Shown here: positions 36,339 to 44,933 of the stretch, one piece after another
Layout: the number at the start of each line of letters is the position of its first letter
How positions within the stretch are numbered: the stretch's first letter is position 1
Origin: Bifidobacterium pseudolongum subsp. pseudolongum DSM 20099
GTDB lineage: Bacteria; Actinomycetota; Actinomycetes; Actinomycetales; Bifidobacteriaceae
DNA: 64,000 nucleotides
Direction: 5' to 3'
Assembly (NCBI RefSeq): GCF_000771225.1
Contig: NZ_JDTZ01000002.1
Location: 124,001 to 188,000, forward strand
Made by a program: the position numbers and the translations under genes
The notes under the pieces: generated by a model
Databases searched by the model: none
What the model was told of the DNA's origin: nothing
What the model saw: only the letters and a program-made list of their open reading frames with translations

Positions 36339-37547
36339 TTACAGACCCAGAACCTGCTTCTTCTTGAGGTCAAATTCCTCCTGGGTGAGGATTCCGGCGT
36401 CAAGCAGCTCCTTGAGGCTCTTCAGTGTCTCCATCTGTTCCGCTACGGACATCGCGGGAGCCGGCGCAGGTTGCGACGCGGCTTGGGCGACTACCGGCTG
36501 TGCATCCGCTGCAGCGGCCATCGCATTCGCCGGATTCATCTGCTGGCCCGGCATCGCCCCGGTCATCGGGTTGACCCCCTGAGCGAAGCCGACCCCGAGC
36601 ATCATGCCGCCCATGTCGCCGAATCCGTTGTCTTGCACGCCTTGGGCGATTTTCTGCTGGGCGGCGATGTTCGACGCCTGCTGCGAGATGTTCTCGTACG
36701 CCGTCACATTCATGCGGTTCGACGAGTACTGCTTGACGAGTTCGCGCGATTCCGGCGTGAACTCGATGCTTTCGATGCCGATGCCCGCCAGATGGATGCC
36801 GAATCGTGACTCCCATGTACCCGCGTTTGTGGGGTCCTCGCTGATCGCGAGCGCGATTGCGTTCGCTTGGCTCGGCAACGCGGAGATACGGTATTCGTTG
36901 CTCAGCGAGTTGAGCGCGACCGAGAACGACTGCATGAATTCACTGAGCAGCTGCGACTTCGTTTTGGGGTCGTCGAAACTGATGTAGTCCACGTTCGGCG
37001 GTACGAATTGCCGGATGAACGCGGTCGGGTTCGTAATGCGCAACGACATCATGCCTCGTGCGCGAATGTCGAGATCGGTGTCGTAGAACTTGTCGTGGTA
37101 CATGAGCGGGGCCGGCGTGCCGAACTTGAGGCCGCGGATCTCGCGGAGGTTCACGAAGGCGACGCGCTTGTTCGCCACTGGTTCGCCGCCGTACTTGAAG
37201 CGTTCGCCGATCTGCCCGAAGATGGATTTGCCGATGCCGTCGCCCGCGAACACACTTTCGGTGCCGCCGGTGCGGTATTCGTACCCGCCGGACTCGGTGA
37301 TGATGCTTTCGATGCCCGACTGGTCGAAGATGAACGCGGCCGTGTTCTCAGGGACATAGATGCGCGACCCGTTGGAGATGACGGCATCGGAATGCTTGGT
37401 GTTCGACCCACGTCCTTGATTCGTTTCCTGATAGACACCCGGCATGAGTGCTACATGCTCATCGAATTGGCCGACCGTGATGATGTCGAGCCACTGATCG
37501 GCGAAGGTGCCGCCCAATGCGCCCGCGAATGCTTTGATCAATGCCAT
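36339..37547 (-). CDS. SPFH/Band-7 protein with C-terminal SHOCT domain
   Basis: A 402-residue protein of the virion-core-protein-like SPFH group (as B. subtilis YdjI). It begins MALIKAFAGALGGTFADQW. The SPFH region runs through about residue 240 (GSRIYVPENTAAFIFDQSG, FGTPAPLMYHDKFYDTDLDI, GIHLAGIGIESIEFTPESRE). A Gly/Met/Ala/Gln/Pro-rich linker follows (about 300-370), then a SHOCT domain (LKELLDAGILTQEEFDLKKK). Such proteins are thought to build membrane-associated scaffolds and often sit with zinc-ribbon partners. Here a GRAM-zinc-ribbon gene lies 37 bases upstream in the same direction, so an operon is likely. There is no N-terminal transmembrane segment. Confidence 0.82.
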   Translation of the reverse strand: MALIKAFAGALGGTFADQWLDIITVGQFDEHVALMPGVYQETNQGRGSNTKHSDAVISNGSRIYVPENTAAFIFDQSGIESIITESGGYEYRTGGTESVFAGDGIGKSIFGQIGERFKYGGEPVANKRVAFVNLREIRGLKFGTPAPLMYHDKFYDTDLDIRARGMMSLRITNPTAFIRQFVPPNVDYISFDDPKTKSQLLSEFMQSFSVALNSLSNEYRISALPSQANAIALAISEDPTNAGTWESRFGIHLAGIGIESIEFTPESRELVKQYSSNRMNVTAYENISQQASNIAAQQKIAQGVQDNGFGDMGGMMLGVGFAQGVNPMTGAMPGQQMNPANAMAAAADAQPVVAQAASQPAPAPAMSVAEQMETLKSLKELLDAGILTQEEFDLKKKQVLGL

Positions 37548-37584: not shown

Positions 37585-38163
37585 TTACAGCTGACGCGAA
37601 GCAGTGCAATACTCACAGATGACTGTCTTCCCATGCCATCCAGTGAGTGTGGCGCCGCAGCCCGGGCATGATATACTCACTTTTTCAGCCACGACTTGCT
37701 GTGGGACTATTTTCTTGCTGAATGCTGTTGTGAACTGATTGGTGACACTACTCAATGCATTTGCAACGTCTGAGACCAATGTCTGCTTGGAACCGACCAA
37801 AGGGTTGGGGTCTCCTGTGATTTCCGCATTGAGCATGTTGACAAACGGTGCAAAATCTTCATATCGAGGGTCACTGAAGTGAATGACCCCATTCGACAAG
37901 TATGCTTTGCATTTATACCACGTATTATCTCGACTGTTCTTCGGCAGCTGCGTCACTTCAATGTGATCTATCGAGGAAAGTGGATATGAATACGAGTATT
38001 CCTCATCGGCACGGAACACATGAAGCTTCGCATAAGACAACACAAGACGTTTCGTTGTGATATAGACATGACCGGACTCGGAGATGCTCTTTATTTTATC
38101 ATCCCAAAATAAGCCATAGTCACCAATGATGGTTTCCCCATATTCGAGCTTAATTTCGTTCAT
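37585..38163 (-). CDS. GRAM/PH-like domain protein with C-terminal zinc ribbon
   Basis: A 192-residue cytosolic protein. Residues about 5-110 look like a GRAM/bacterial-PH beta domain (GHVYITTKRLVLSYAKLHVF, YPLSSIDHIEVTQL, KAYLSNGVIHFSDPRYEDF), a fold that binds lipids or membrane proteins. The C-terminus has a CPGCG...CEYC zinc-ribbon pair. I chose the ATG at 38163 (MNEIKLEYGE) because AGGAG lies six bases before it. It is followed closely by the SPFH gene, and the two probably act together at the membrane. Codon and base use are visibly more AT-rich than in the purine genes. The assignment is by pattern only. Confidence 0.65.
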   Translation of the reverse strand: MNEIKLEYGETIIGDYGLFWDDKIKSISESGHVYITTKRLVLSYAKLHVFRADEEYSYSYPLSSIDHIEVTQLPKNSRDNTWYKCKAYLSNGVIHFSDPRYEDFAPFVNMLNAEITGDPNPLVGSKQTLVSDVANALSSVTNQFTTAFSKKIVPQQVVAEKVSISCPGCGATLTGWHGKTVICEYCTASRQL

Positions 38164-38291
38164 GCTACTCCTCTCCATGCGCCTCGTTGCACATTGTTGC
38201 CTTCATCACCTAGCGGACCTTCACCACATGCTGTCACCTCTTCTGAAATCCGTGGGACACTCGGTGCGAATTCTGCAAAGAAGACGAAGGA

Positions 38292-38352: not shown

Positions 38353-39909
38353 TCAGGACTTGAATGCCGAAGCTTTCTTCATGTACCTATCCACATACTT
38401 CTGAATATCGAAATCCTTGCTGAAGAATTCGCTGTTAATATCTAGCCACGCGCTATAGGTATCAGATCGCATATCAAACCAATTCTCATAGAAGTCAGAA
38501 CGCGCGTCATACCAGTTCTCGTAGCATTCACTATGCACGTCATACCAAGCGCTGTAATCCTCATCTTCAGCTTTCTTGGCGTCGTCAGAGCGTTCAAGCA
38601 CACCCTCGTAATACTTGTCATTCATTTCCTCAAAGGCATCCTCATAGATGGAGTCCTCCAGATTTTTGAATTGATCTTCATACACATAGTCCTGATATTC
38701 TTCCATCACTGCATCGATCTCGTTGGAAGAAGCATTCTGCATGTTCTGAGCGATGTAGGTATAGAATTTACCGCTATTCTCGCCGATGCGCTGATACAGA
38801 TCAGCAGTACGGCTGTCTACATATGCATACCAGTCAGCGATTGCCTGCTTGTTCTGGTTGTACGAAGCATATGTATCTCCAACTTTCTCGAATGTGGCAT
38901 TGAGCTCATTATTGATGTCTGAAATCGCCGAATCAACATCCATGCCGATTGCAGTCAAAGCCTCACCTGCAGCGCCAGGCGCCTTGATATTATCCGTGGA
39001 TTGCGTGGTGTCATTGGCTGTGGATTCCGAAGACGATGGAGAGGGACTCTCCGACGGCTCTTCAGAACTTGAGGAGGATGGTTTGCTGCTTGAAGATGGT
39101 GAGGAGGAGGAAGATGACGAAGGCGTTTTTGCCGCAGTCGTTGTCATGGCCTTCGGCATATTCACACAGCCGAAGATGATGGCAAGCACTGATATACCTA
39201 CAGCTACACCGGAAAGGATGCGGTTCGCAAGATTCTTGTCAAGCATGAGCGAGGCATACAGCGAGAATCCTGAAAAGGCTAGTGAGACGATGCCGAGCAC
39301 CCATACCAGCCATGCCCCGGTCTTGGGAGTGAGCACAATAAGCAGAATCAGCGCAATCACAGATACAGCCAATGCGCCGATGGCCAGATAGAGCACCCAT
39401 GATGCGGGCTTCTTTGGTGTAGGTGTACCACCGCTTGCAGATTGGGCATTCCACGTCTGTTGAGTCAGCTGCGGCTGGGTTGCGTTCATCTGCTGCATCA
39501 TGAGCTCCCGGTTCAGTTCACCAAAGAAGACCATGGATTCCATCTGAAGGCTCGCTGTTGGCTGTCCTTGCGGAACGAACTGAACAACAGAGCCTGTCTG
39601 CACTCCCGGAACAACATGTACCATATACAAAACACCGTCGTTACGCGAAGCAACAGATGCGGTCTTAGCAACGTCATCGGCCATGATCAGCCCAAACGAC
39701 TGACTATGCATGAGCGCGTTCTTTACAGCTTGATAGACGTCTTCCACCGACTGAGGAAATTGCTGCGCGGGAATCTGCGGCAAAGACTGTGTTGCAGTGT
39801 CCGGCGTAGATGCGGCGCCAGTAGCCATTGCGACTGGTTGCTCAGCTGTGTCGAATGGCGTTTTTGTTGTGGGTCGCTCCGGCATTGGAGTGGGATCTGG
39901 AGTGGACAT
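38353..39909 (-). CDS. Membrane protein with Ser-rich linker and 11-residue aromatic repeats
   Basis: A 518-residue protein of unknown function. A Pro/Thr-rich N-terminus is followed by a globular part (about 50-135, SVEDVYQAVKNALMHSQSF, GVLYMVHVVPGVQTGSVVQF). Then come three hydrophobic segments (about 175-260: ASWVLYLAIGALAVSVIALI, the next starting GAWLVWVLGIVSLAFSG, and ILSGVAVGISVLAIIFG). A Ser/Pro-only linker (about 275-320) leads to an acidic helical tail. Near the C-terminus four 11-residue units repeat: SAWYDVHSECY, ENWYDARSDFY, ENWFDMRSDTY, SAWLDINSEFF. The layout suggests a cell-surface or membrane-sensor protein. It is AT-rich compared with core genes. Confidence 0.7.
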   Translation of the reverse strand: MSTPDPTPMPERPTTKTPFDTAEQPVAMATGAASTPDTATQSLPQIPAQQFPQSVEDVYQAVKNALMHSQSFGLIMADDVAKTASVASRNDGVLYMVHVVPGVQTGSVVQFVPQGQPTASLQMESMVFFGELNRELMMQQMNATQPQLTQQTWNAQSASGGTPTPKKPASWVLYLAIGALAVSVIALILLIVLTPKTGAWLVWVLGIVSLAFSGFSLYASLMLDKNLANRILSGVAVGISVLAIIFGCVNMPKAMTTTAAKTPSSSSSSSPSSSSKPSSSSSEEPSESPSPSSSESTANDTTQSTDNIKAPGAAGEALTAIGMDVDSAISDINNELNATFEKVGDTYASYNQNKQAIADWYAYVDSRTADLYQRIGENSGKFYTYIAQNMQNASSNEIDAVMEEYQDYVYEDQFKNLEDSIYEDAFEEMNDKYYEGVLERSDDAKKAEDEDYSAWYDVHSECYENWYDARSDFYENWFDMRSDTYSAWLDINSEFFSKDFDIQKYVDRYMKKASAFKS

Positions 39910-39947: not shown

Positions 39948-40008
39948 CGACAAAGCATTACAGGGTGATGCAGCAACACATCGCCGCATCACCCTGTAAT
40001 GCCTGTCG
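39948..40008 (-). terminator. Long hairpin after the 47-residue small gene
   Basis: 17-base perfect arms (39955-39971 and 39986-40002), extended by CGACA/TGTCG outside a few unpaired bases. It begins directly after the TGA of the small frame at 40009, on the minus strand, and is followed by TTTGTCGG. Confidence 0.75.
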
Positions 40009-40152
40009 TCAGTCGGCCTGTGTGGAAGAACCGTCAGGTCTTCCTTCGTGGTCGTCGACGCAGTGCACCTCGCCTTGTTGCTCCGGTTCTTGCACCGCAT
40101 CCTCGAACGCTCGTACACCGCGCAGTATCATGCCTGCCAATTGCGTAAACAT
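40009..40152 (-). CDS. Small 47-residue protein of unknown function
   Basis: On the minus strand, AGAGGAG sits six bases before an ATG at 40152 that opens 47 codons: MFTQLAGMILRGVRAFEDAV, then an acidic hydrophilic tail with CVDDHEG, ending SSTQAD. A long hairpin begins right after the stop. A good ribosome site, a short frame and an adjacent terminator together make a real small gene likely. The first 20 residues could form an amphipathic helix and the rest looks disordered. It precedes the repeat-bearing membrane gene in the same direction. It could be a membrane-active peptide or regulator. No family was recognised. Confidence 0.6.
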   Translation of the reverse strand: MFTQLAGMILRGVRAFEDAVQEPEQQGEVHCVDDHEGRPDGSSTQAD

Positions 40153-40401
40153 GACTGCACTCCTCTCTGACGAGACATTCCCTTGTACGCAACCGACCTT
40201 CGGCTACACAGCGAGCGGATGGCACCGCTCACAGGAACTCGTCATTAAGGGGCATGTTTTATTCGCGAATCAGCACTCCTTCCCCTACGCGATCCAGTGC
40301 GAAACAGTTGTAATGACGAGCGTTTCACGCTAGAACCATTCTCGAATCTTTGATTTATAGTGTCAATGACATAACATGATATAAATCTGAAATAAATGTG
40401 C
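40153..40401. other. Divergent AT-rich control region
   Basis: About 250 bases between the small minus-strand gene and the plus-strand XRE gene. It contains an inverted pair CTCGTCATTA (near 40238) and TAATGACGAG (40311-40320) about 63 bases apart, and an AT-rich stretch after 40340. Probably holds both promoters and regulator sites. Confidence 0.4.
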
Positions 40402-40414
40402 TATGTTTTATACC

Positions 40415-41113
40415 ATGGATACTATAAACGAGGCGAGTGCACAGGCGTGGAGAACCCGCCTGCGGGCATGTATGGACGAACGGGGGCTCACCCAGCTGGG
40501 ATTGGTCAGCGCGCTCAACCGCCAGTACCTCACGAAATACCACCAAAAAGACGTCAGCCGCTGGCTCAACACCGGCAATCGCACCACGAGCGGCGTCATC
40601 GGCTTCCCCAAGTACGAAACGATGTCCATTCTCGCGGATTTCTTCGGTGTGGATGTGGGGTATCTGACCGGCGAGACCGATGAGCGGAGTTTTAACCTGC
40701 AGCACGCATGCGATTACCTGAGTCTTGATGGATCTGCGATCAGCGCACTGCGCAAATGGATTCGCAAAGGCACAGGCAGCACCACAGATGACGGTAAAAA
40801 CCCCACTATGCGCAGCTACCGCGCGGACACACTTAACGAACTTTTCTCTTCCCCCGAATTTGGAACCATGGCAGCAAAACTGCTCACCTTGCATGAAATG
40901 TCCGCAATCTGGCAAACCAATCCCGAACGGTTCAGTTCGCTTATGGCCTCGCTCGCTTCAGACAGCGAACTTCCCGACGACCTGACATTTCAACTCATTC
41001 TCGGCGCGTTCTATGGCATGGCGAGCGAGTCATTCTCCGCGCTTCTAAGAAGTGCTTACCCAATTCCAAACGAACAGCAGTTCGAACAACTCATCATCGA
41101 ACATGATTCCTGA
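40415..41113 (+). CDS. XRE-family transcription regulator
   Basis: A 232-residue protein with an N-terminal helix-turn-helix (about 10-75: AWRTRLRACMDERGLTQLGL, KDVSRWLNTGN, FPKYETMSILADFFGVDVGY). The C-terminal part is unlike known effector domains. No Shine-Dalgarno sequence precedes the ATG at 40415 or the in-frame ATG at 40403. TATGTT at 40402-40407 is placed as a -10 so that RNA would begin at 40415, which points to a leaderless message. The AT-rich upstream region and the divergent small gene suggest local regulation. The next gene in the same direction begins 186 bases on. Confidence 0.75.
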   Translation: MDTINEASAQAWRTRLRACMDERGLTQLGLVSALNRQYLTKYHQKDVSRWLNTGNRTTSGVIGFPKYETMSILADFFGVDVGYLTGETDERSFNLQHACDYLSLDGSAISALRKWIRKGTGSTTDDGKNPTMRSYRADTLNELFSSPEFGTMAAKLLTLHEMSAIWQTNPERFSSLMASLASDSELPDDLTFQLILGAFYGMASESFSALLRSAYPIPNEQQFEQLIIEHDS

Positions 41114-41298
41114 CCGGACATGAGCATTATCACATCAGTATGAGGCCGAGCCCCGCTCACACACAATCTCCTACGAACATTCACGGAAACATGCGTCATT
41201 CCAGCCTTGGCTTGCGATACCATGTCGATACATCAGATGGCTTATCGAATTCTCGGCAACGGGAAACAGGCCGATTCAGAAAGAGAGAGGACCGTGCC

Positions 41299-42540
41299 AT
41301 GGCGCATGAGATCGAAGTTTACGGCGATGATGACGGATTCATGCTTCTTGGCGATTCCGCAGATATTCGACAGGCTTTAGCCGAACTTCAGATTGAAGAG
41401 AATCACACTATCGATATCGGCAAAGCCGCGATATTGAAAAATGCACATCGTGCTGTGAAGTTGTTCGGGAAAATGCAAAAACGTTCAGGACGCTGGGTGA
41501 AATTCACCAAGGAATCTGCGGAAAAAGCTCAGAAATACGGCTTGCTGCGCAATAAATCAACTGGCAATTTCATGGGAGTAATAGGCCAAGCGGCCAAAGG
41601 TGGCATCAAGGGTAACGTACAGTTTGAGACAATGGTAGAAGTATTCACACCCGACAAGGTAGCGAATATCGAGATGCTCATGCTGACGCTTGCCCTAGAG
41701 CAGGCCATGAAAGAGATGACTGACTACCTCAAGCAGATTGATGCTAAAGTCGATCAGGTATTGCGACAGCAAAAGAACGCCGAACTGGCAAAATTCCTCA
41801 GCGTTGCAGGTTTGGCCACGGAGGCCGAAAAAGAATTGCAACACATAGGCAGCCTTTCAGACGCAACTTGGGACCAGTTGAGCAACAGTGCCCAAACGGT
41901 GAATGAAGTGCAGCAGTATTCACTGCTTCAGCTCAAAGACATCACAGAGAAGATTAATTCTGCAGCGGATACCCGATCCGCCAAAGACGTATTGACAACC
42001 GTTCGTCCACGCATCGGGGAATGGCTTGCCGTCGCCGCAGATTGTCTTCGCATGCGGGATCGAATAGACATGCTTAAGGTGCAGCGGTTTATCGATATGG
42101 GCATCGAACCAGATCTCTTGAGCAAGCATCGGTTCGTCATCACAGAAAACCGTCGCGCACGCTATCGATCACTAACCGATACCACTGCCAACTTGCAGCA
42201 AGCCATCAAAAACGTCGTGCAAGGCAAAGATGATACCATGCGCGTTATTCTCCTGCCAATGGATGCGCCTGTTGTGGTGCGTGAAGGCAATGCGATCGCG
42301 AGCGCCCTCGCTCGATTCGACAAGGCGCTAGGAAAGGAATATGCGGTTCCGCGCTTCAACGAAAAACAGTGGGATCAGGCAATGGGTGAGGTCGGACAGG
42401 CCATTGCGGACGGCACGGGGCAACTCATGCACTACGCCGAGGGGATTTTTGGCGAGGGCACCAAGCAGATTGGGAATGTCGCCAACGAGGCTGGAGATCA
42501 GATCAAAAAAGTATTTGGGAATTTCCCGAAATTGTGGTGA
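41299..42540 (+). CDS. Helical cytosolic protein of unknown function
   Basis: A 413-residue protein I do not recognise. I chose the ATG at 41299 (MAHEIEVYGDDDGFMLLG) because GAGAGAGGACC lies before it; the frame extends to 41140 without support. It appears mostly helical, with a likely coiled coil about 120-165 (ALEQAMKEMTDYLKQIDAKV) and no clear membrane segment. The C-terminus is Gly-rich and amphipathic (GEGTKQIGNVANEAGDQIKK). It is AT-rich like its neighbours and lies just after the XRE regulator on the same strand. A bidirectional hairpin ends it. Phage-related or membrane-stress roles are possible but unsupported. Confidence 0.6.
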   Translation: MAHEIEVYGDDDGFMLLGDSADIRQALAELQIEENHTIDIGKAAILKNAHRAVKLFGKMQKRSGRWVKFTKESAEKAQKYGLLRNKSTGNFMGVIGQAAKGGIKGNVQFETMVEVFTPDKVANIEMLMLTLALEQAMKEMTDYLKQIDAKVDQVLRQQKNAELAKFLSVAGLATEAEKELQHIGSLSDATWDQLSNSAQTVNEVQQYSLLQLKDITEKINSAADTRSAKDVLTTVRPRIGEWLAVAADCLRMRDRIDMLKVQRFIDMGIEPDLLSKHRFVITENRRARYRSLTDTTANLQQAIKNVVQGKDDTMRVILLPMDAPVVVREGNAIASALARFDKALGKEYAVPRFNEKQWDQAMGEVGQAIADGTGQLMHYAEGIFGEGTKQIGNVANEAGDQIKKVFGNFPKLW

Positions 42541-43618: not shown

Positions 43619-44842
43619 TCAATGCTTGCGGTTGAGGAACGCGGCCTTGACCAGTTCGATGATCATCTGCCGCATGTCTTTGCCGCCACCGGCTTGGGAC
43701 GCTTGCGCGATGCCGCTGACTTTTCCGAGGAATCCTTCTCCGAACTGCTCTTCCATCAGATGCTGCACCCAGCCGATGTCGCGCACGCTCCGCTGGCCGG
43801 TATACACCTGTTCGAACGCGATCACCGCGCCCTCGCCGAGCGCCGCGATGATGCTCGCCGCCACAATCGCATTGAGCACACTGGCGGCGATATTGATGCC
43901 TGGAATCGCCTTGATCGCACTGATCGCCGAATGAGCCACCACGCCCGCAGTGCCCACCTGCACAATCGAATCGAGGAATTGCTTGGAATCCTCATCGCGG
44001 TCAATCTCATACAGGCGCGCCAATCCGTTGAGCTCGGCGAGCTCGAGCGGCGAGAGCACGAGCGAATCAGCAATCGGAATCGGCACTGCGCCCACGGTCG
44101 CACCGGCCGCCACGCTCGCCCCAATCAGGCCTTGCGCAAGCACGCGCTTGCGGGTGAGTTTGAACTGCATCAGGTCGTGCGCGCCGCCCTGCATGCCTTC
44201 GGGCATCGCGCGCATCGTCGCGTCGATCAGGTCGGTGATGCCTTCCGGCGGCGCGAACGCCGTCTCGTTGATCACGAATGTCTGCGCGACGACCGGCACG
44301 ATCGCGCGCAGGTTGCGTTCCACACGCTGCCCGTGGAACGCCTGCCGCACCATCTCGATGTTGCGCGCGCGATCTGCCTGCGAATACGACTTGGTGATGA
44401 CGGCGATGATCGGCACAGACTTCCACATCGCGATCGAGTTGGAGAAGTTGCGGATCGTCTCTGGGAACAGCTTCGCCGCCGTGCCATCCACACAGAACCA
44501 AATCACGTTGATGCGGCTGTTCTCATTGCCCTCTTGCGCACTCGACCGCGACCATTTGCGTACGGCGTGGATTGCGCGCAGACTCTTGATCGGCGAAGGT
44601 TCGAATCCGATGGAGTCGATGACACGGAACGGCACCGATGGACTTGCGTAGATGGCAAGCTCCTCGGTTGTGCCACGCGTGCCGAAACTGGTCTTGGCGA
44701 TGTCATCGCCGATCACGGCGTTGATGAGCGTCGATTTGCCCACGCCGGAATTCCCCAGCACGAGCACGTTGCCTTTATGGACCGGCTGCTGGGGTGCAGG
44801 GGCGGGCTGCACGTCGATTACATGGCCGTTGTCGTATGTCAT
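43619..44842 (-). CDS. DUF697-type GTPase
   Basis: A 407-residue P-loop GTPase. G1 is LGNSGVGKSTLINAVIG, the G2 region is TSFGTRGTTEE, G3 is RVIDSIGFEPS, and the G4 position reads TKSYSQAD, a departure from NKxD. The C-terminal half has Gly/Ala/Ile-rich helices (VAAGATVGAVPIPIADSLVL, INIAASVLNAIVAASIIAAL) of the DUF697/YcjF kind that contact membranes. I chose the ATG at 44842 (MTYDNGHVID). TATGAT ends six bases before it with no ribosome site, so the mRNA is probably leaderless. The role is unknown; relatives act in membrane or stress responses. Confidence 0.75.
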   Translation of the reverse strand: MTYDNGHVIDVQPAPAPQQPVHKGNVLVLGNSGVGKSTLINAVIGDDIAKTSFGTRGTTEELAIYASPSVPFRVIDSIGFEPSPIKSLRAIHAVRKWSRSSAQEGNENSRINVIWFCVDGTAAKLFPETIRNFSNSIAMWKSVPIIAVITKSYSQADRARNIEMVRQAFHGQRVERNLRAIVPVVAQTFVINETAFAPPEGITDLIDATMRAMPEGMQGGAHDLMQFKLTRKRVLAQGLIGASVAAGATVGAVPIPIADSLVLSPLELAELNGLARLYEIDRDEDSKQFLDSIVQVGTAGVVAHSAISAIKAIPGINIAASVLNAIVAASIIAALGEGAVIAFEQVYTGQRSVRDIGWVQHLMEEQFGEGFLGKVSGIAQASQAGGGKDMRQMIIELVKAAFLNRKH

Positions 44843-44933
44843 GCGGTTATCATAGGCACATCGCATACGGCTGCGCCCTTGGCGTTTTCACGTCAAGGGC
44901 GCAGCATTCGGTGGAGGGGCAGTGCCCCACAGG

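What the first reader, a model, noticed from the sequence alone, without database searches (positions are those of the whole stretch)
40009..40152. Unlisted 47-residue gene with ribosome site and hairpin
AGAGGAG six bases before ATG, 47 codons, then a hairpin beginning directly at the stop. It sits at the divergent control region opposite an XRE regulator. This could be a regulated small membrane-active peptide or the toxin of a small system.
Basis: partly seen in the sequence, partly recalled or inferred. Interest (0 to 1): 0.6.

Follow-up and report, generated by a model that had tools for sequence, protein, structure and literature searches.

The report
Conserved small protein behind structured leader
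The predicted 47-residue gene is real: it belongs to a small-protein family of bifidobacteria, always found beside one regulator gene and usually behind a folded RNA leader that hides its ribosome site, and it looks like a membrane-touching regulatory peptide rather than a toxin.

Summary
The ORF at 40009-40152 is on the minus strand and is a genuine gene of a Bifidobacterium close to B. pseudolongum. Seventeen homologous loci occur in 16 of 189 Bifidobacteriaceae genomes, in two genera. Each lies opposite the same XRE regulator; in one genome that regulator is only a remnant. About 22 N-terminal residues (MFxQLAxxILxGxRxxDxA) are conserved. Codon-position variation and pN/pS 0.36 (0.97 and 1.84 in the other frames) show protein-level selection. 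The product is an amphipathic helix plus a disordered tail, usually acidic, with no transmembrane segment, so a toxin is unlikely.

It is the first gene of an operon of membrane, GRAM/zinc-ribbon and SPFH proteins. The stop-codon hairpin is conserved in shape but not in sequence in six genomes.

The SPFH operon also exists without this gene, usually opposite another regulator, so the small protein probably belongs to the XRE control module. I favour a PspA-like feedback or sensing peptide. Its existence is well supported; its function is inferred.

The parts
40009..40152 (-). Small ORF, 47 aa: conserved amphipathic N-terminus (res. 2-20) plus variable acidic tail
40160..40168 (-). Shine-Dalgarno AGAGAGGAG, 7 nt from ATG
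   Evidence: sequence; conserved
40156..40268 (-). Structured 5' leader RNA hiding the SD (model R1)
   Evidence: SD unpaired probability about 0.2, against window-gene median 0.5
40251..40267 (-). 17-nt leader box CGCGAAnAAAACATGSC, shared with EcsC-like gene leaders
40247..40252 (-). anti-SD CCCCTT (P0 5' arm)
40238..40244 (-). P1 5' arm TGACGAG
40168..40174 (-). P1 3' arm CTCGTCA, touching the SD
40338..40366 (-). Predicted promoter TTGACA-17-GAGAAT of the small gene
   Evidence: aligned TTGAC at the same place in 16 loci
40361..40371 (.). Palindrome TGTCATTGACA over the -35, candidate XRE operator
40403..41113 (+). Divergent XRE-type regulator (start probably at 40415)
39948..40008 (-). 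Intercistronic hairpin starting right after the stop
38353..39909 (-). Next gene: variable 3-TM membrane protein (518 aa)
37585..38178 (-). GRAM/zinc-ribbon-like protein (197 aa; weak Pfam matches only)
36339..37547 (-). SPFH (Band_7_1) plus SHOCT protein (402 aa)
41140..42540 (+). Uncharacterised gene downstream of XRE (466 aa), paralogous to a gene at EcsC-type loci

Best explanation
The ORF encodes a conserved small protein that is part of the control module (XRE + leader RNA + small protein) of a membrane/GRAM-ZnR/SPFH envelope operon. SHOWN by comparative sequence evidence: it is under protein-coding selection; it lies first in the gene cluster; it is linked to the XRE; its SD is buried in a covarying predicted leader structure. 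INFERRED: XRE represses the divergent promoter through the TGTCATTGACA palindrome. The leader is a second, translational lock. When made, the amphipathic helix partitions between the membrane and a partner, most likely XRE's conserved C-terminal domain, giving PspA-like feedback or sensing of envelope state. The hairpin after the stop sets the ratio of small protein to membrane proteins.
For: Profile hits: 17 loci in 16 genomes, all within a few hundred bp of the XRE or its remnant; XRE/motif co-occurrence 15 of 16, Fisher p about 4e-20. Selection: third-position entropy 1.24 against 0.51 and 0.43, pN/pS 0.36 in frame only. Amphipathicity muH 0.41-0.57, shuffle p 0.003-0.04; helix model. Operon position and overlaps of the next start with the small stop. 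Leader: 9 of 19 pairs with both-side changes, 0 of 500 shuffles as good, slid controls fail. All 14 genus genomes with XRE + small gene also carry SPFH, while 14 close SPFH genomes lack the small gene; most of the ten read have another regulator opposite. Precedent: PspA 1-24 peptide inhibits PspF (reported in PMC6003685).
Against: G066 keeps a diverged small ORF and leader although its XRE is a remnant. No expression or binding data. The PspA helix-1 resemblance is not significant (class-preserving permutation p about 0.085). XRE's C-terminal fold was not resolved. Two genomes (G070, G024) use a different start-hiding structure.
Confidence: 0.45

Rival explanations
1. Structural component: the small amphipathic protein is a subunit or membrane adaptor of the SPFH/ZnR/membrane-protein complex, not a regulator.
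For: Same operon, next gene overlapping its stop in several species; 14 of 14 XRE+small genomes in the genus carry SPFH; survives XRE loss in G066.
Against: About half of the close SPFH genomes lack it and most of those read use another divergent regulator; the downstream genes vary while XRE does not; in G027 the SPFH gene lies on another contig.
Confidence: 0.28
2. Translation-regulatory leader ORF: what matters is the act of translating it (coupling to, or attenuation of, the next gene), not the peptide.
For: SD-hiding leader, strong hairpin right after the stop, overlapping starts in several species.
Against: Purifying selection on the amino acids of codons 2-22 and invariant F2 L5 A6 L10; no runs of one codon or arrest-like motif seen; 47-78 residues is long for an attenuator.
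Confidence: 0.15
3. Toxin of a small toxin-antitoxin pair, with the XRE protein as antitoxin/regulator.
For: Small, amphipathic, next to an XRE regulator.
Against: Divergent rather than co-operonic with XRE, no TM segment, usually acidic tail, no family match, operon head with envelope genes, retained without intact XRE in G066.
Confidence: 0.06
4. Spurious ORF in a conserved regulatory region.
For: The DNA around it is also conserved.
Against: Frame-specific selection; length-variable tails in a kept frame; SD and start kept while the upstream DNA diverges.
Confidence: 0.03

Closest known systems
pspA-ydjGHI operon of Bacillus subtilis (PMC8581546; PMC11237479)
   Same: Lead gene with an N-terminal amphipathic helix, hairpin/terminator before the next genes, zinc-ribbon, membrane and SPFH/Band-7 proteins.
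   Different: Lead protein is 47-78 aa, not PspA; XRE control instead of sigma-W; structured leader; this genome's PspA lies on another contig.
PspA helix 1 acting on PspF (PMC6003685)
   Same: Short amphipathic helix; a PspA 1-24 peptide is reported to inhibit a transcription factor.
   Different: Sequence resemblance not significant here; the regulator is XRE, not an AAA+ enhancer-binding protein.
RBS-sequestering riboswitches and leaders (e.g. SAM-VI of Bifidobacterium; own knowledge)
   Same: 5' leader with anti-SD pairing and a conserved unpaired box.
   Different: No Rfam match; ligand unknown; predicted SD occlusion does not change from 25 to 45 C.
Rgg-SHP / XRE-peptide quorum pairs (own knowledge)
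   Same: XRE-family regulator and a divergent small gene.
   Different: N-terminus, not C-terminus, is conserved; no signal peptide seen; tail is hydrophilic and variable.

Membership tests
PspA/IM30 (PF04012) | Pfam profile match | tested here: not met
   only DUF4240 at E 0.15; PspA of this genome is on contig C20
PspA/IM30 (PF04012) | helix-1 sequence similarity | tested here: inconclusive
   permutation p 0.04; hydrophobic-class-preserving 0.085
PspA/IM30 (PF04012) | long coiled-coil hairpin after helix 1 | tested here: not met
   47-78 aa; tail without predicted structure
Type I TA toxin | single hydrophobic transmembrane helix | tested here: not met
   mean hydrophobicity of the helix about 0.3-0.55 with charged face
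Type I TA toxin | antisense RNA antitoxin | not tested
   no transcript data
Type II TA pair with XRE antitoxin | toxin and antitoxin in one operon | tested here: not met
   genes divergent in all linked loci
Known Rfam leader | covariance-model match | tested here: not met
   only one sub-threshold sR53 match elsewhere in the stretch
RNA thermometer | SD becomes accessible on heating | tested here: not met
   predicted SD unpaired probability about 0.20 at 25, 37 and 45 C; prediction only
Riboswitch | ligand binding | not testable with these tools
   needs in-line probing
Rgg-SHP type quorum pair | conserved C-terminal pheromone and export | tested here: not met
   C-terminus variable

The most novel reading that the evidence does not exclude
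The leader is a new class of cis-regulatory RNA, defined by an unpaired CGCGAAnAAAACAUGSC box followed by an RBS-hiding stem. It controls unrelated envelope genes (this small protein and EcsC-like proteins) in Bifidobacteriaceae, and the small protein is the membrane-sensing partner of XRE.
Probability: 0.25. Interest if true: 0.7.

Novelty: new variant of a known kind. Interest (0 to 1): 0.55.

Why it matters
To my knowledge bifidobacteria have few described envelope-stress circuits. A conserved small protein matching no Pfam or NCBIfam model (automatic annotation would probably miss it), placed between a regulator and an SPFH operon and translated only if a structured leader opens, is directly testable. 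The shared leader box suggests one RNA-level signal controlling several envelope loci, which would be a new regulatory RNA.

Tried and rejected
Family libraries (Pfam, NCBIfam, PADLOC, PHROGs) gave no match for the small protein. Homology to PspA helix 1: suggestive by eye, not significant. An earlier run used the wrong ORF and another timed out. Class-wide profile search (395 genomes): one partial chance-level hit outside the family. AF2 of XRE: only the HTH region reaches moderate confidence; not used for fold search. XRE against PDB sequences: only chance hits. The leader segment MPLNDE... as an upstream ORF: start codon not conserved (ATG/ACG/ATC), rejected. RNA thermometer: predicted SD occlusion unchanged to 45 C (that script stopped with an error after 14 of 16 leaders).

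Full report
OBSERVATION. The ORF is at the stated coordinates but on the minus strand: 47 codons, AGGAG 7 nt before ATG, and a stem that begins on the base after TGA. The hairpin folds far better than shuffles (z = -9.3). It lacks a proper T tract and is not called a terminator.

IT IS A GENE. A DNA and protein search of 112 genomes of the genus found near-identical copies in two relatives and 44-58% matches in others. All convincing matches lie opposite the same XRE gene. A 26-column profile (A2) run over 189 Bifidobacteriaceae genomes found 17 loci in 16 genomes: 16 at E <= 8e-14 and G066 at 8.7e-5. The next match anywhere is at E = 0.015. A sample of 395 genomes of the class gave no credible match outside the family. 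Over codons 2-22 the third position varies most (entropy 1.24 against 0.51 and 0.43); pN/pS is 0.36 in frame and 0.97 and 1.84 in the other frames. The conserved core is MFxQLAxxILxGxRxxDxA; the tail differs in length (47-78 aa in all) and sequence. The core is an amphipathic helix (muH 0.41-0.57, shuffle p 0.003-0.04), modelled as a helix at residues 2-20 with a low-confidence tail.

CONTEXT. The small gene heads an operon. In the window it is followed by a 3-TM protein, a GRAM/zinc-ribbon-like protein and an SPFH+SHOCT protein. In several relatives the next start codon overlaps the small gene's stop (G046, G019, G070, G071b), and in two (G024, G071b) the GRAM/ZnR gene follows directly. In six genomes (window, G062, G034, G018, G026, G022) a hairpin follows the stop; its sequence differs between species groups while its pairing is retained, and it is absent where the next gene overlaps. 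The SPFH protein occurs in 28 of 112 genomes at high similarity, including all 14 with XRE + small gene (Fisher p 1.7e-10). In the ten loci read among the other 14, the SPFH operon lacks the small gene; in most a different HTH gene and/or a kinase-like gene (identified by eye) lies opposite. This suggests the small gene belongs to the XRE module rather than to the SPFH machinery.

TRANSCRIPTION. All 16 aligned loci share a block close to TTTATAACATgTTAyGTCATTGAC. The TTGAC serves as a -35 with a candidate -10 17 nt away (scan). The palindrome TGTCATTGACA overlaps the -35. XRE repression there is inferred, not shown.

LEADER RNA. Six diverse leaders fold on their own to one architecture: an unpaired conserved box, CCCCUU pairing with the SD, P1 (UGACGAG/CUCGUCA) touching the SD, and a variable interior with hairpins (z -3.1 to -5.9). 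On a 12-sequence alignment 90% of cells pair, 9 of 19 pairs have double changes, and no shuffle of 500 reaches the observed values; slid versions fail. Caveat: several rows are close relatives, so independent double changes in the outer helices are about five by my count. A calibrated model finds 14 leaders at E < 1e-12, all upstream of the small gene, and weaker hits at E 1e-4 to 1e-3 upstream of EcsC-like genes (my naming from sequence, not confirmed by a family search) in G030, G020, G019, G011 and G158. The shared element is the box CGCGAAnAAAACATGSC. With one mismatch it occurs at 31 places in the family, against 6 for the reversed control pattern, and most well-matched sites are these two leader types. 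Two of the EcsC-type loci also carry a paralog of the window's 466-aa gene. SD unpaired probability is about 0.2 in most leaders (0.4 in the G046 group) and unchanged from 25 to 45 C, against a median of 0.5 for 18 window genes. G070 and G024 instead place the AUG in a stem and the SD in its loop. Rfam has no match.

MECHANISM. I propose a two-lock control: XRE at the promoter and the leader at the ribosome site. Once made, the small protein acts through its amphipathic helix. Because it follows XRE rather than SPFH across genomes, feedback on XRE, or delivery of membrane state to XRE, is most likely. Precedent: PspA's helix-1 peptide (1-24) is reported to inhibit PspF (PMC6003685), and in B. 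subtilis the pspA-ydjGHI operon has a similar layout of an amphipathic-helix gene, a terminator, then membrane/ZnR/SPFH genes (PMC8581546, PMC11237479). This is analogy: the PspA sequence resemblance is not significant. G066, where the XRE is a remnant but the small ORF and leader persist with changes at otherwise conserved G12 and R14, keeps the structural-subunit rival alive.

KNOWN OR NEW. No family library names the protein; only a limited literature search was possible. I file it as a new variant of a known kind: a small amphipathic protein in an envelope operon under an SD-hiding leader.

Noticed in passing
L150-L153 and L157 (EcsC-type loci in G030, G020, G019, G011, G038): Leaders of EcsC-like genes carry the same 17-nt box; in G030 and G038 GCCCAUGGU can pair with the start region ACCAUGGGC.
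   Followed up: partly
L160, L172, L175, L183: Four genomes keep the box and flanks but lack the EcsC-like gene directly after it, as if cut or replaced by recombination.
   Followed up: no
L191-L200: SPFH operons without the small gene mostly face another HTH gene and/or a kinase-like gene, suggesting interchangeable control modules.
   Followed up: partly
L155 (G066:C20): XRE reduced to about 45 C-terminal codons while small ORF and leader persist; purL-like gene adjacent as in the window and in L154.
   Followed up: partly
L095 (G071:C31): Two XRE+small modules in one contig; in one the small frame runs without stop into a lipoprotein gene.
   Followed up: partly
L096, L097 (G070, G024): A second conserved 44-45 codon ORF precedes and overlaps the small gene start.
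   Followed up: no
window 41140-42540: 466-aa protein of no known family, with a distant paralog (about 28%) at two EcsC-type loci.
   Followed up: no
window 43619-44866: GTPase (MMR_HSR1) with weak DUF697 match, in the same neighbourhood in several relatives.
   Followed up: no
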